Origin: Streptomyces justiciae
Lineage (GTDB): Bacteria > Actinomycetota > Actinomycetes > Streptomycetales > Streptomycetaceae
Direction: 5' to 3'
Assembly: GCF_015163075.1 (NCBI RefSeq)
Contig: NZ_JADDXU010000001.1
Span: 558,001 to 622,000, forward strand
DNA length: 64,000 nucleotides
Each line of letters opens with the position of its first letter. Position 1 is the stretch's first letter. The notes under the pieces were generated by a model. It made no database searches. It had not been told where the DNA came from and saw nothing but the letters and a program-made list of their open reading frames with translations. This document shows, in pieces, positions 58,565-64,000 of the stretch. A program made the translations under genes and the position numbers.

Positions 58565-60178
58565 TCAGCGACCCAGCGCCCGGCGGCCGCGGCCCTGGGA
58601 GAGGACCGGGAGGTTGCGGGACTGGCCGTTGTCGCGGGGCGCCGACTCCTCCAGGCGCAGGGCGAGGGCGGGGCAGCGGCGCACCGCGCGCAGGGCCTTC
58701 GCCTCGGCGTAGCGGGGGACCTGGGCCTGGGCGACCGTGGGGAAGCCGTCGGCGCCGAGTTCGAAGACCTCCGGGAGGATGTCGGCGCACAGGCCGTGGC
58801 CGCGGCACAGCGTCCAGTCGACGTAGATCTTCTGGCGGCTGGGGCCGCTCTCCTCGGCCTCGGCGCCGCCGGGGATGCCCGTAGGTGTCTTGCCGCCCTC
58901 GAAGAGCGGCAGAACGCCCTCCACGGGCCGTCCGCAGCCGTTTCCGAGGACGTGGGCGGCGAGGTCGTCGGTGAACGCCTTGATGGTCGACTCCAGGAAC
59001 ATCGCGGAGCCGTCCGGGTGCGAGCACGCGCCGCGCCGCTTCACGTTCTTGGCGACCTGCTTGAGCGCCTCCAGGGCGGCCGGACCGCCGCCGTTGAGGA
59101 TGTCCTCCATGCCGCGCGCGGCGGCCGGCAGCCCGAGGTAGCAGGGGCCGCACTGGCCCGCGCTCTCCTCGGCCAGCCACTTCGCCACCATCAGCGACTC
59201 GCCCAGCGGGCAGGTGTCCTGGCTGATCGGCAGGATCGCGCCCGCGCCGAGCGAACCGCCCACCGCGTCCAGGGAGTTGCGGGAGACGATCGCCTCGTTG
59301 ACCGTCGCCGCGTCGATCCACTTGCCGTGGTAGCCGCCGGTCAGCACACCCTGGGGGACCGGCGGGGCGCCCGCGAGCTGGAGGACGTAGCGCAGCGGCA
59401 CGCCCGTGGGGACCTCGATGACCATGGGGCGGGCGACCGCGCCGGAGACCGTGAGCATGACGGTGCCCGGCTCGTCGTACAGGCCGGTGTTGCCGTAGCG
59501 CTCGGGGCCGATGCGGGCGGCGATCGCCAGTTGCGCGAAGGTCTCGGCGTTCGACAGCAGGGTCGGGGCGCCGCCGACGCCGTTCTGGGAGGCGCTGACC
59601 TTGCGGCCGGGCGGGATCGCCGGGCCGCCGTCGATCGAGCGGATCAGCGAGGCCGCCGCTCCGGTGACCATACGGACGGGATTGCGCTGCACACGCGCGC
59701 GGAGAGCGGATCTACGGCCGTTGCTCAGACCGCGTTCGGCGAGTGCGGCCTCCATGGAGCGCTGGGTGGACTCCCGGGTGACCCCCACCACGAGCGTGCG
59801 GGCACCGAGGGCCTCGGCGGCCAGCAGGGCGCCGTCCAGGATGAGGTGCGGGGCACGGTTGATGAGCACCGTGTCCTTGCGGCAGGCCGGTTCGTCCTCG
59901 CTGCCGTTGACGACGACGACCGGTCGTACACCGCGCTTGATGGCCGCCTCGGCGACCGAGCGCAGCTTCTTGTGGAAGGGGAAGCCCGCGCCGCCGCGGC
60001 CCTTCAGGTTGATGTTCTCGGCGAGCTTCGCGAGTTGCTCGCCGCCCATGGGTTCGAGCGGCCCGTGCACCTTCAGGTGCATGGGCAGATCGAGTCTTTC
60101 GACAAGGTCGAAGCCCGACGTGAGCTGGGGAAGACCGACCACGCGGACTTCTGGGACGTCGGGCAGGGCCTCGTTCAC
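58565..60178 (-). CDS. NuoF-like flavoprotein fused to a C-terminal ferredoxin
   Basis: A 537-residue electron-transfer protein. Residues ~40-200 match the NuoF FMN/NADH domain (GRGGAGFPFHKKL; SEDEPACRKDT), then an SLBB-like region (about 240-330) and the NuoF iron-sulfur helical bundle, where the usual ESCGxCxPC becomes ESAGQCGPC (first Cys replaced by Ala, other Cys kept). Residues ~455-515 are a small ferredoxin (CRGHGLCADILPEVF ... RRCPALAL), the type that carries one [3Fe-4S]/[4Fe-4S] cluster. GTG at 60178 overlaps the stop of the cytochrome gene (GTGA). This and its membrane partner likely move electrons from NAD(P)H to a membrane heme; it is not part of a nuo operon. Confidence 0.86.
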   Translation of the reverse strand: MNEALPDVPEVRVVGLPQLTSGFDLVERLDLPMHLKVHGPLEPMGGEQLAKLAENINLKGRGGAGFPFHKKLRSVAEAAIKRGVRPVVVVNGSEDEPACRKDTVLINRAPHLILDGALLAAEALGARTLVVGVTRESTQRSMEAALAERGLSNGRRSALRARVQRNPVRMVTGAAASLIRSIDGGPAIPPGRKVSASQNGVGGAPTLLSNAETFAQLAIAARIGPERYGNTGLYDEPGTVMLTVSGAVARPMVIEVPTGVPLRYVLQLAGAPPVPQGVLTGGYHGKWIDAATVNEAIVSRNSLDAVGGSLGAGAILPISQDTCPLGESLMVAKWLAEESAGQCGPCYLGLPAAARGMEDILNGGGPAALEALKQVAKNVKRRGACSHPDGSAMFLESTIKAFTDDLAAHVLGNGCGRPVEGVLPLFEGGKTPTGIPGGAEAEESGPSRQKIYVDWTLCRGHGLCADILPEVFELGADGFPTVAQAQVPRYAEAKALRAVRRCPALALRLEESAPRDNGQSRNLPVLSQGRGRRALGR

Positions 60179-61464
60179 CTATAGCCTCCGGAAGGCATGT
60201 TCCAAGGTTCGCCCGAGCCCGGTGCACCGAAGTCGTAGGACTCACCGGGCGTTGGATCAGTGGCGGGACCGCTGTTGTACGTGTCGTTCGAGTAGTACGT
60301 GCCGGAAACGGTGTTCGACTCACCGGTGTCGTACACGTCACTCGTGCCGTATCCGGACGTGTCCGCATTGCGGTAGGTCGGGATGTTGTATCCGGTGTCC
60401 TGGAGCGGGTCGTAGGCGGACGGGGGTGCCTCGCCGACCGGGGGTGGCGACGGGATCGGCCAGCTGCCCGAGGTGCTGCCGCCGCTGTCGTAGCGGGGCA
60501 TGGCCTCGGTGGGCTGCATGTCCATGGGCAGGTCCATGCGGGCGGTCTGGTCGGCGCCGTACGACGGTTGTTGCGGGATGCGCGGGGTCGGGGTGACGGC
60601 GCGGTAGGCGGCCGCGAAGCCGTTCGCGGGTTCCGGGGCGGGGGCGGGGGTGTCGTAGGAGGCAGGTGCCGTGCGGGGCTGGGCGGGGCGCGCGTTCTCG
60701 TAGCCGGGCAGCGCGGCGGAGGAGGCCTCGGCGACCCTGGCCCGGCTCGCGTCCAGCTCCTCGCGGCCCGGCCGCTCCTCGGTGCCCAGGATCGCCTGGA
60801 TGCGGTCGGCGACCTTGCGCTTGACCGGGCGGGGCGCCGCGCGCAGGGCGAGCGCGGCCATGACGCCGGCCAGCGAGAGGCTGTAGAGGATCACGAAGAT
60901 CGGCTTCGCCTCGCGACCCGCGTAGAGGCCGTGGACCAGGGCGAAGCACCAGGCCGGGTAGGCCAGCATGTGCATGGCGCGCCAGCGGGCCGCGACCGGT
61001 GCCGGGGAGGCGAACTGGTTGCGCAGGGCGCCGGTGATGCCCACGAAGATCATCAGCAGCCCGGCCAGCGAGCCGAGGCCGATGAGCCCGGCGCTGCCGG
61101 TGACGCCGAGCGAGAACGGGATGATCGCGGCGATCAGCTGGGTGTGGTCGAGGGCGACCTTCGTGGTGATGTGCAGCAGCAGGAAGGCGATCGAGCCGAC
61201 GGCGGTCGTGCGGTGCACGGCCTGGCCGATGATCCGCTGTTTGGGGTTGAGGAAGATCCGGTCCTGCGCGACCAGACCCCAGATCACCGAGCAGCTGAGG
61301 GAGACGAGGGACAGCACGCCCGCGCCGAAGTTCAGGAAGTCACGGACCGTGTCACCTCCTACCAGCACGAACACGGGTATGAAGAGCAGAACGACAGCCG
61401 TCGCCATGCCGTAGGCCGAGCGGCCGGGCCGGGGGAGCGAGCTGTTACTTCGACGAGGGTTCAT
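60175..61464 (-). CDS. Di-heme ferric reductase-like transmembrane protein
   Basis: A 429-residue protein with about six membrane helices in residues 15-205. Two pairs of heme-ligand-like His appear (HRTTAVGSIAFLLLH with 13 between; HMLAYPAWCFALVH with 12 between), typical of the ferric-reductase/cytochrome-b-561-like domain. The C-terminal ~200 residues are a disordered Pro/Tyr/Ser/Asp-rich tail with no FAD domain, so reduction must come from a separate protein, most simply the flavoprotein-ferredoxin encoded by the overlapping gene downstream. Start: ATG at 61464 with GGAG 8 nt upstream. The upstream promoter region is shared with the divergent leuS leader. Confidence 0.84.
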   Translation of the reverse strand: MNPRRSNSSLPRPGRSAYGMATAVVLLFIPVFVLVGGDTVRDFLNFGAGVLSLVSLSCSVIWGLVAQDRIFLNPKQRIIGQAVHRTTAVGSIAFLLLHITTKVALDHTQLIAAIIPFSLGVTGSAGLIGLGSLAGLLMIFVGITGALRNQFASPAPVAARWRAMHMLAYPAWCFALVHGLYAGREAKPIFVILYSLSLAGVMAALALRAAPRPVKRKVADRIQAILGTEERPGREELDASRARVAEASSAALPGYENARPAQPRTAPASYDTPAPAPEPANGFAAAYRAVTPTPRIPQQPSYGADQTARMDLPMDMQPTEAMPRYDSGGSTSGSWPIPSPPPVGEAPPSAYDPLQDTGYNIPTYRNADTSGYGTSDVYDTGESNTVSGTYYSNDTYNSGPATDPTPGESYDFGAPGSGEPWNMPSGGYR

Positions 61465-61713
61465 GGGGGCAACTCCGAGCAGTTCGGGAAGGCGGTCCCG
61501 CTGCCGCACTCTAAGTGGAGCCATACCGATCGGTACGGGGTTTGAGTTATTGCGCTGTTACCAAAAGGCTGTGTGGTCGTTGTGTTGTCCCTTAGGGGGC
61601 GTTACGCGAAGTAACTTTTGACGTTTGTTCAGTTCGGTACCCGATGTCCGGGGCCATAGGAGGCATACGTATGTGCGTCGCGGCTTGCTCAACGGCTGCG
61701 GTACCCTGACGCC

Positions 61714-61752
61714 ATGCGTGCCGTACGCCTTCTGCTTAGCGAGCCGCGCTGA
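61714..61752 (+). CDS. Putative leuS leader peptide (MRAVRLLLSEPR)
   Basis: A 12-residue ORF with three consecutive Leu codons (CTT CTG CTT at 61729-61737). It lies 165 nt upstream of leuS and is followed by a hairpin starting in its last codons and by an intrinsic terminator. TACCCT at 61702-61707 plus a 6-nt gap before the ATG suggests that transcription may start at this codon, i.e. a leaderless leader peptide. Alternatively, an upstream ORF (61671-61709) with a good ribosome site, ending 4 nt before this ATG, could couple translation. A slowed ribosome at the Leu codons would be the sensor. Confidence 0.65.
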   Translation: MRAVRLLLSEPR

Positions 61753-61797
61753 TCAGTCCCGACCGCCGGACGAGCCGGCCGGTCGGAGTCAGCGCGG
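61744..61797 (+). promoter_or_regulatory. Leader hairpin 1 (overlaps leader-peptide stop)
   Basis: CCGCGCTGA (61744-61752) pairs perfectly with TCAGCGCGG (61789-61797). Inside, CCGACCG (61759-61765) pairs with CGGTCGG (61780-61786), and CCGG (61766-61769) with CCGG (61775-61778). The 5' arm is exactly the last two sense codons and stop of the leader peptide, so ribosome position must control it. Confidence 0.6.
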
Positions 61798-61799
61798 CG

Positions 61800-61824
61800 T
61801 CCCCTCCTGTGCGAGGGGATTTTT
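61800..61824 (+). terminator. Attenuator terminator upstream of leuS
   Basis: TCCCCTC (61800-61806), 6-nt loop, GAGGGGA (61813-61819), then TTTTT. It lies 55-79 nt before the leuS ATG and 48 nt after the leader-peptide stop. Confidence 0.75.
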
Positions 61825-61878
61825 CGTTTCCGGAACGAGACAGCCGCTGGCAGAGACGATCGATGGAGCTTGAGGATC

Positions 61879-64000
<2,122 letters not shown>

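What the first reader, a model, noticed from the sequence alone, without database searches (positions are those of the whole stretch)
61685..61878. Apparent leucine attenuator in front of leuS
A 12-residue peptide (MRAVRLLLSEPR) with three consecutive Leu codons is followed by a long hairpin whose 5' arm is the last two codons plus stop of that peptide. A 7-bp terminator with five Ts comes next, then leuS. These are the ordered parts of ribosome-mediated attenuation. The -10 box TACCCT 6 nt before the peptide's ATG suggests it is read from a leaderless mRNA, unusual for an attenuator. I found no clear antiterminator pairing by eye, so the switching mechanism may be non-classical. I recall related predictions for leu/ilv genes in Actinobacteria but cannot confirm this one.
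Basis: partly seen in the sequence, partly recalled or inferred. Interest (0 to 1): 0.75.

Follow-up and report, generated by a model that had tools for sequence, protein, structure and literature searches.

The report
Flush two-hairpin leucine attenuator before leuS
In front of the gene for leucyl-tRNA synthetase, this very likely Streptomyces genome carries a tiny leucine-rich reading frame followed by two predicted RNA hairpins that touch each other, an arrangement found in many actinobacterial families that likely lets the cell make more of the enzyme when leucine runs short; the switch was already predicted for Streptomyces in 2005, but its parts suggest a mechanism different from the textbook one.

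Summary
New here: (1) Spread: a covariance model matches 158 of 394 genomes and 64 of 137 genera of the class; a LeuS-like gene follows in 37 of 40 fetched hit regions, and in one genome of another class. (2) The long hairpin (SL1) and the terminator covary; with a ribosome waiting at the last Leu codon (11-nt channel), 185 of 187 distinct sequences offer no upstream partner for either terminator arm. (3) Two fixed distances: SL1 starts at +12 from the P site when the last Leu codon is in the A site, the mRNA-channel entrance where stem-loops stay folded; and SL1 ends 0-3 nt before the terminator in 214 of 218 parsed leaders. Best model: a ribosome waiting for Leu-tRNA leaves SL1 folded, and SL1, flush against the terminator, would block it; a ribosome at the stop codon would unfold SL1 and permit termination. 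Leucine control and the steric step are untested.

The parts
61702..61707 (+). -10 element TACCCT (TAnnnT), 6 nt before the leader start codon; likely leaderless promoter
   Evidence: spacing 6 or 7 nt in 182 of 182 leaders found (a TAnnnT at 5-9 nt was part of the search rule); leaderless start reported for the identical peptide in S. lividans (PMC8079986)
61714..61752 (+). leader peptide gene leuL, MRAVRLLLSEPR
61729..61737 (+). Leu codons CTT CTG CTT; the last (61735-61737) is the invariant 'anchor' codon
61738..61742 (+). 5-nt linker (AGCGA) that puts the first base of SL1 at +12 from the P-site codon when the anchor codon is in the A site
   Evidence: placement compared with PMC8861025 and PMC7282821
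61743..61752 (+). 5' arm of hairpin SL1 (GCCGCGCTGA, contains the leader stop codon)
61753..61788 (+). loop region of SL1, variable in length between species; holds an inner hairpin in the window's predicted fold
61789..61798 (+). 3' arm of SL1 (TCAGCGCGGC), ends 0-1 nt before the terminator stem
61799..61819 (+). terminator hairpin, G.U + 7 bp, loop CTGTGC
61820..61824 (+). U tract of the terminator
61865..61875 (+). likely ribosome-binding region of leuS (GGAG 61865-61868, GAGG 61872-61875), strongly conserved in Streptomyces
61879..64000 (+). leuS, leucyl-tRNA synthetase, runs off the window

Best explanation
Bases 61714-61824 hold a conserved leucine-codon leader before leuS that likely works as a ribosome-controlled transcription attenuator, in which a ribosome waiting for Leu-tRNA would leave hairpin SL1 folded and the folded SL1, lying flush against the terminator, is predicted to block termination, whereas a ribosome that reaches the stop codon would unfold SL1 and let transcription stop. 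Shown here: the peptide, the rare CTT anchor codon, its fixed distance to SL1, covariation of SL1 and terminator, and their direct adjacency. Modelled here: SL1 folded with either the first Leu or the anchor codon in the A site, unfolded with the stop codon there, and almost no competing partner for the terminator arms in the waiting state. Inferred: that leucine shortage raises leuS transcription, and that two touching hairpins exclude each other inside RNA polymerase. In the terminated complex the base of the terminator stem lies next to the RNA-DNA hybrid, so an upstream duplex 0-1 nt away would have to open several of its G-C pairs. The linker also puts SL1 where frameshift stem-loops slow A-site tRNA binding, so SL1 may itself sharpen the wait at the last Leu codon (inferred).
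For: Leader ORF in 80 of 80 near leuS loci, codons CTT 80/81, CTG 81/81, CTT 81/81 with the window. Wider set: 182 of 208 loci have it; last Leu codon CTT in 179 and CTC in 3; exactly 6 nt from that codon to CCG in 182 of 182. In 37 more leaders from other families a Leu codon (CTT 34, CTC 3) sits at that place, with the leading G of SL1 required by my parser. SL1 plus terminator: 95.5% of cells paired, 6 of 17 pairs with changes on both sides, 0/500 shuffles as high. SL1 survives where the peptide end changes: stop before SL1 (MRSGLLLA, VARFLLLT, MRAILLLS) or after it (MRAATLLLTGPHRPSRR), with compensating arms. Gap SL1-terminator 0-3 nt in 180 of 182 (first set) and 34 of 36 (second set). 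State model on 187 distinct sequences: all SL1 pairs kept in 181 with the anchor in the A site (11-nt edge), none kept in 185 with stop in the A site; in the anchor state at least 4 bases pair upstream in 1 of 187 for the terminator's 5' arm and 1 of 187 for its 3' arm. [quoted passage not shown] The only other model hit at E <= 1 in this genome, the ilvB leader, has the same flush design.
Against: Both hairpins fold together in the free RNA (178 of 187; window), so exclusion rests on sterics inside RNA polymerase, which no tool here tests. If the ribosome edge is 15 nt instead of 11, the anchor-stalled ribosome leaves a median of 64% of SL1 pairs and all pairs in none of 187, and then at least 4 bases of the terminator's 3' arm pair upstream in 91 of 187, mostly with the SL1 loop (median gain 1.2 kcal/mol, 5 or more in 17). 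A 26-nt footprint centred on the codon, as used in PMC13236596, would cover about 7 of the 10 bases of the SL1 5' arm. PMC8861025 says the effect on A-site tRNA binding depends on stem length and loop, and that pairing at +13 to +15 is ambiguous for dnaX, so position alone does not prove it. SL1 can refold after the ribosome leaves, so termination must fall while a ribosome sits on SL1; and the model predicts high expression without leader translation, unlike trp (recalled). For the ilvB leader of S. coelicolor, PMC1262725 cites that codon changes had no effect. 26 of 208 loci lacked the leader by my scan (two of these, L163 and L164, are probably other synthetases), 23 of the 26 outside the family; 236 of 394 class genomes had no model hit at E <= 0.01 under strict filters. 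The terminator's outermost pair is unpaired in 22 of 50 sequences.
Confidence: 0.52

Rival explanations
1. Protector model: SL1 helps termination (like the 1:2 hairpin of trp). A ribosome stalled at the last Leu codon would cover the lower part of SL1 and free its strands, which then would disturb the terminator, for instance by pairing GCGCGG of the 3' arm with the terminator loop CUGUGC.
For: With a 15-nt ribosome edge the anchor-stalled ribosome removes part of SL1 and 91 of 187 sequences then pair at least 4 bases of the terminator's 3' arm upstream. In the window the loop pairing forms in truncated transcripts when the stop codon is in the A site, and 93% of cells pair. The last Leu codon, nearest SL1, is the most conserved one.
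Against: The loop pairing shows no covariation (0 pairs with changes on both sides; 456/500 shuffles pair at least as well) and fails in several families. The 3'-arm pairings are weak (median gain 1.2 kcal/mol against -15.0 for the terminator hairpin alone) and mostly use the variable SL1 loop. The Leu codons lie upstream of SL1, not in its 5' arm as in trp (trp layout recalled), and the stop codon is in SL1, which is the layout of an antiterminator arm.
Confidence: 0.22
2. Reversed control: SL1 folded means termination, and a ribosome moving through or ending on SL1 means read-through, so leuS would be transcribed when the leader is translated well.
For: SL1 and terminator fold together when free (178 of 187). 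With the stop codon in the A site the released strands pair with at least 4 bases of the terminator's 3' arm in 73 and of its 5' arm in 26 of 187 (gain of 5 kcal/mol or more in 42 and 8).
Against: Would lower leuS in leucine shortage, against the direction shown for the Mtb ilvB1 attenuator (PMC13236596, section 10 part 1).
Confidence: 0.08
3. Classical trp-type attenuator with a base-paired antiterminator competing with the terminator, as the 2005 paper called it.
For: Leader peptide, stop codon, hairpin and terminator in the classical order; PMC1262725 names an antiterminator hairpin (the figure is not held). In ribosome-free RNA the Leu-codon region can pair with the terminator's 3' arm in 177 of 187 sequences if the 5' arm is kept open (median gain 5.3 kcal/mol).
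Against: With the anchor codon in the A site (11-nt edge) an upstream partner exists in at most 2 of 187. The Leu-codon pairing is weaker than the terminator hairpin (median -15.0 kcal/mol), has no fixed register, would be covered by the stalled ribosome, and does not explain CTT (changing the anchor to CTC in the model raises the gain, CTG leaves the median unchanged).
Confidence: 0.13
4. No leucine control: a leaderless small ORF and a constitutive partial terminator that merely set a basal leuS level.
For: No expression data under leucine limitation in the sources read.
Against: Does not explain the rare CTT anchor, the fixed 5-nt linker, or SL1 compensation across families.
Confidence: 0.05

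Closest known systems
leuS attenuators predicted in S. avermitilis and S. coelicolor (PMC1262725) and leuL2 of S. lividans (PMC8079986)
   Same: Same gene, same place; the S. lividans peptide MRAVRLLLSEPR is identical and reported leaderless, followed by a hairpin and a U stretch.
   Different: Those reports name Streptomyces only for leuS. The 2005 paper calls it classical with an antiterminator; here almost no competing pairing is found for the stalled state, and the fixed linker, flush hairpins and wide spread are added.
ilvB/ilvBNC attenuators of Actinobacteria (Mtb ilvB1, PMC13236596; Corynebacterium ilvB-II, PMC10272879; own-genome ilvB leader L211)
   Same: Cognate codons, stop codon, hairpin, terminator. 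In the own-genome ilvB leader SL1's first G-C pair is at the same place after a CTT codon and the two hairpins touch. The Mtb attenuator responds to branched-chain amino acid shortage.
   Different: Senses Ile/Val/Leu. For Corynebacterium ilvB-II the authors propose an alternative pairing of the P1 loop with the terminator's 3' side; the analogous pairing in leuS appears only weakly and only with a 15-nt ribosome edge or at stop.
trp/leu-type attenuators of enteric bacteria
   Same: Ribosome position on a leader with cognate codons decides termination.
   Different: Those use overlapping 1:2, 2:3, 3:4 helices (recalled); here there are two adjacent, non-overlapping helices.
Frameshift-stimulating stem-loops (dnaX, HIV)
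   Different: No slippery heptamer at the Leu codons in the window; the stem would serve transcription control; the tRNA-binding effect depends on stem length and loop (PMC8861025).

Membership tests
Ribosome-mediated transcription attenuator (broad sense) | short leader ORF with run of cognate codons upstream of a gene of that amino acid | tested here: met
   Leu run before leuS
Ribosome-mediated transcription attenuator (broad sense) | intrinsic terminator between leader ORF and gene | tested here: met
   covarying stem plus U tract, (termination itself not measured)
Ribosome-mediated transcription attenuator (broad sense) | a structure whose folding depends on ribosome position | tested here: met
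   in the folding model SL1 is fully kept in 181/187 with the anchor codon in the A site (11-nt edge; 0/187 fully kept with a 15-nt edge, median 64%) and lost in 185/187 at stop
Ribosome-mediated transcription attenuator (broad sense) | expression changes with supply of the cognate aminoacyl-tRNA | not testable with these tools
   needs reporter or RNA-seq under leucine limitation
Classical trp-type attenuator | conserved antiterminator that overlaps and competes with the terminator by base pairing in the stalled state | tested here: not met
   11-nt edge: upstream partner in at most 2 of 187; 15-nt edge: weak 3'-arm pairings in 91 of 187; candidate loop pairing not covarying; Leu-codon pairing without fixed register
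Classical trp-type attenuator | a ribosome at the stop codon disrupts the antiterminator candidate | tested here: met
   SL1 lost in 185 of 187; stop 6-30 nt after the anchor codon start
T-box leader or other Rfam family | match to an Rfam model | tested here: not met
   on 61000-62500, E <= 1: only two microRNA matches far below their gathering scores, outside the element
Programmed -1 frameshift site | slippery heptamer X XXY YYZ 5-9 nt before the stem (pattern recalled) | tested here: not met
   codons CTG CTT AGC in the window, read by eye; other species not checked

The most novel reading that the evidence does not exclude
leuS, and probably ilvB, of Actinobacteria are controlled by a distinct attenuator design: a stem-loop parked at the ribosome's mRNA entrance when the last cognate codon is in the A site, and butted against the terminator so that it antiterminates by blocking space in RNA polymerase rather than by stealing bases. 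One helix would thus read the ribosome at its 5' base and the polymerase at its 3' base.
Probability: 0.37. Interest if true: 0.78.

Novelty: new variant of a known kind. Interest (0 to 1): 0.52.

Why it matters
Attenuation is a textbook case of two RNA folds competing for the same bases. Here a leader found beside leuS in 24 families of the class (my count) shows almost no such competition in the stalled state, yet fixes two distances: codon to hairpin, and hairpin to terminator. If the flush-hairpin model holds, it is a simpler way to build a tRNA-charging sensor on leaderless mRNA. It might also explain why attenuator components were missing in several actinobacterial predictions (PMC1262725), and it gives one clean experiment (a spacer insertion) to separate steric from base-pairing antitermination. 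It also widens leuS attenuation from a few Streptomyces to much of the class.

Tried and rejected
Rfam scan of 61000-62500: nothing relevant. Pairing of the SL1 3' arm with the terminator loop: looked attractive in Streptomyces but does not covary, rejected as a conserved antiterminator. Pairing of the Leu-codon region with the terminator's 3' arm: possible in 177 of 187 free RNAs when the 5' arm is held open, but weaker than the terminator, in no fixed register and not favoured by CTT, rejected as the switch. Pairing of the SL1 3' arm with leader codons 3-5 and of Leu codons with the leuS ribosome-binding site: looked at by eye only, not conserved between families. A small ORF ATGGAGCTTTGA overlapping the leuS ribosome-binding site in many Streptomyces is broken in the window and changes between species, so not counted as a part. 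Withdrawn: the part, and all, that tested for partners of the terminator arms; the constraint I used barred those bases from pairing at all, so 'no partner in 187 of 187' was an artefact. One search replaces it, and I lowered the best explanation from 0.55 to 0.52 and the novel case from 0.40 to 0.37, and raised the classical rival from 0.10 to 0.13. Literature on a leucine response of leuS in Streptomyces: none found in the listings; the 2010 review by Lopatovskaya and others was seen only as a reference entry. Supplementary 3'-end data of S. clavuligerus (PMC8269248) could not be read; the find in its main text gave no leuS. Terminator background: only 3 terminator-like sites in the window by my rule, and only the leuS one has a touching hairpin upstream, too few for a statistic.

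Full report
What is there. The window (position 558001-622000 of contig C1 of a 10.45-Mb genome) carries leuS from ATG 61879; the first 167 residues are 99% identical to those of Streptomyces sp. GKU 895, so the host is very likely a Streptomyces. Upstream lie TACCCT 61702-61707, the ORF MRAVRLLLSEPR 61714-61752, a long hairpin SL1 (arms 61743-61752 and 61789-61798), and a terminator 61799-61824. RNA folding of 61714-61835 gives -65.9 kcal/mol against -48.5 (sd 4.05) for 200 shuffles.

Prior art. PMC1262725 (whole text; figures not held) predicted 'classical candidate attenuators' before leuS in S. avermitilis and S. coelicolor. PMC8079986 (passages) lists leuL2 MRAVRLLLSEPR before leuS in S. 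lividans TK24, transcribed leaderless, followed by a hairpin and U stretch. The bare finding is therefore known. Six searches listed no experiment on a leucine response of leuS in Streptomyces and no extension of the leuS leader beyond Streptomyces; they read an open-licence library only, and the 2010 review by Lopatovskaya and others was not seen.

Spread. In 80 of 80 named near leuS loci the ORF is present with nearly invariant codons. In all 208 loci collected up to (with the window, its duplicate L083, the duplicate L167 and two probable non-leuS loci), 182 have a leader ORF with TAnnnT 6-7 nt upstream; among the 42 loci from outside the family (L168-L209) it is 19 of 42. A covariance model R1 from 56 sequences finds two places in the own genome at E up to 1: this one (8.4e-19) and the ilvB leader (0.0048). 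In the class it matches 158 of 394 genomes and 64 of 137 genera at E <= 0.01; in a phylum sample 13 of 198 genomes at E <= 0.001, one of them, G632, in another class. Of 40 fetched hit regions, chosen by me for family spread, 37 encode a LeuS-like protein downstream on the same strand (tblastn, E 1.1e-8 or better); L232 and L233 carry ilvB-like leaders and L245 ends with its contig. The G632 hit also precedes a LeuS-like gene, with peptide MAAALLLSPPR. The large model searches use strict filters, so misses are not proof of absence. By my count leuS-side loci come from 24 families of the class.

Invariants. (a) The last Leu codon ends exactly 6 nt before CCG of SL1 in 182 of 182 leaders; it is CTT in 179 and CTC in 3. 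In 37 further leaders the codon at that place is CTT 34, CTC 3. CTT is 1.8% of Leu codons in the window's putative genes. Other Leu positions vary: CTT, CTG, CTC, TTG, and two to four in number. (b) SL1 pairs: three of ten never vary, four have changes on both sides; the terminator's outermost pair has five standard types but is unpaired in 22 of 50 sequences. The shuffles do not remove relatedness. In other families the arms are rewritten together, e.g. GCCGCACCGG/CCGGTGCGGC and GCCGTGCTG/CGGCACGGC. The stop codon may fall before, in or after the SL1 5' arm (offset 6, 15, 18, 21 or 30 nt from the anchor codon), so the RNA helix, not the peptide tail, is kept. (c) The gap between SL1 and terminator is 0, 1, 2 or 3 nt in 131, 13, 35 and 1 of 182 (6 and 8 nt in one each), and 0, 1 or 3 in 21, 12 and 1 of 36 in the second set, two without a parsed terminator (gaps up to 10 nt were allowed). 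The SL1 loop ranges from 10 to 102 nt in 173 leaders and goes down to 4 nt in the second set.

Mechanism. I modelled ribosome positions on 187 distinct sequences. With the anchor codon in the A site and an mRNA channel of 11 nt, SL1 keeps all pairs in 181; with the stop codon in the A site, no pair remains in 185; with a 15-nt edge the anchor state keeps a median of 64%. The 11-nt figure is that of PMC7282821 and PMC8861025 (passages): the bacterial channel takes 11 nt downstream of the first P-site base, and frameshift stem-loops starting at +12 stay folded there and hinder A-site tRNA binding, though this last effect depends on stem length and loop. By the invariant spacing SL1 starts at +12 when the last Leu codon is in the A site. 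So SL1 is folded while the ribosome waits at any Leu codon and begins to open once the last one is decoded. If leucine shortage is to raise leuS, folded SL1 must favour read-through.

Is there a competing pairing? My first test (part, repeated) was faulty and is withdrawn. The valid test folds transcripts up to the terminator loop for the 5' arm, and with the 5' arm held open for the 3' arm, and counts at least 4 bases paired upstream. Anchor codon in the A site, 11-nt edge: 1 of 187 for each arm. 15-nt edge: 14 (5' arm) and 91 (3' arm), mostly with the SL1 loop, median gain 1.2 kcal/mol for either arm. Stop codon in the A site: 26 and 73. No ribosome: 24 and 178, of the latter 177 with the Leu-codon region, median gain 5.3 kcal/mol against -15.0 for the terminator hairpin alone. 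That Leu-codon pairing has no fixed register and is not favoured by CTT, and a stalled ribosome would cover it. Free RNA still folds into SL1 plus terminator in 178 of 187. I therefore infer that SL1 acts through its flush contact with the terminator: the base of a terminator stem lies near the hybrid inside RNA polymerase, where a second duplex one base upstream would not fit. This last step is inference from general knowledge of RNA polymerase, not tested here.

Sibling. The ilvB leader of the same genome (L211, peptide MRTRILVLGKRVG) folds into a hairpin whose first G-C pair lies 8 nt after the start of its last CTT codon (with an extra A-U pair one base earlier) and which touches its terminator. 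L233 (ilvB-like) also has touching hairpins in its predicted fold; in L232 the lowest-energy fold differs, although complementary arms are present. The Mtb ilvB1 attenuator responds to branched-chain amino acid shortage and needs its regulatory codons (PMC13236596, section 10 part 1 of 2). Against this, PMC1262725 cites changes of ilvB leader codons in S. coelicolor without effect.

Verdict. The spread through the class, the two fixed distances and the near absence of a competing pairing in the stalled state make it a variant worth testing.

Noticed in passing
L211:1501-1620 (G000:C44, outside the window): The only other hit (E <= 1) of the leuS-leader model in this genome is the ilvB leader (MRTRILVLGKRVG), with the same codon-to-hairpin distance and touching hairpins.
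   Followed up: partly
61541-61569: A block around TTGAGTTATTGCGCTGTTACC about 340 bases before leuS recurs in many Streptomyces loci (seen as the repeated small ORF FELLRCYQ), perhaps promoter or operator of the divergent ORF 60175-61524.
   Followed up: no
61849-61881: GGCAGA and GACGATCGATGGAG before leuS are nearly invariant in the Streptomyces loci; in many of them ATGGAGCTTTGA forms a three-codon ORF there, broken by one base in the window.
   Followed up: partly
L169, L170, L176, L177, L217, L218: In other families a TCCGG box follows the U tract within about 10 nt (e.g. CATGTCCGGA); its role is unclear.
   Followed up: no
L019, L034, L047, L055, L069: The stretch between terminator and leuS carries short duplications of GCAGCCGC(T/A)GG in some species.
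   Followed up: no
L212, L213, L214, L240, L242, L243, L246: Leaders whose peptide stops right after LLLx, before the hairpin, so that Pro-Arg is lost while the hairpin is kept (in L213 with a mismatch).
   Followed up: yes
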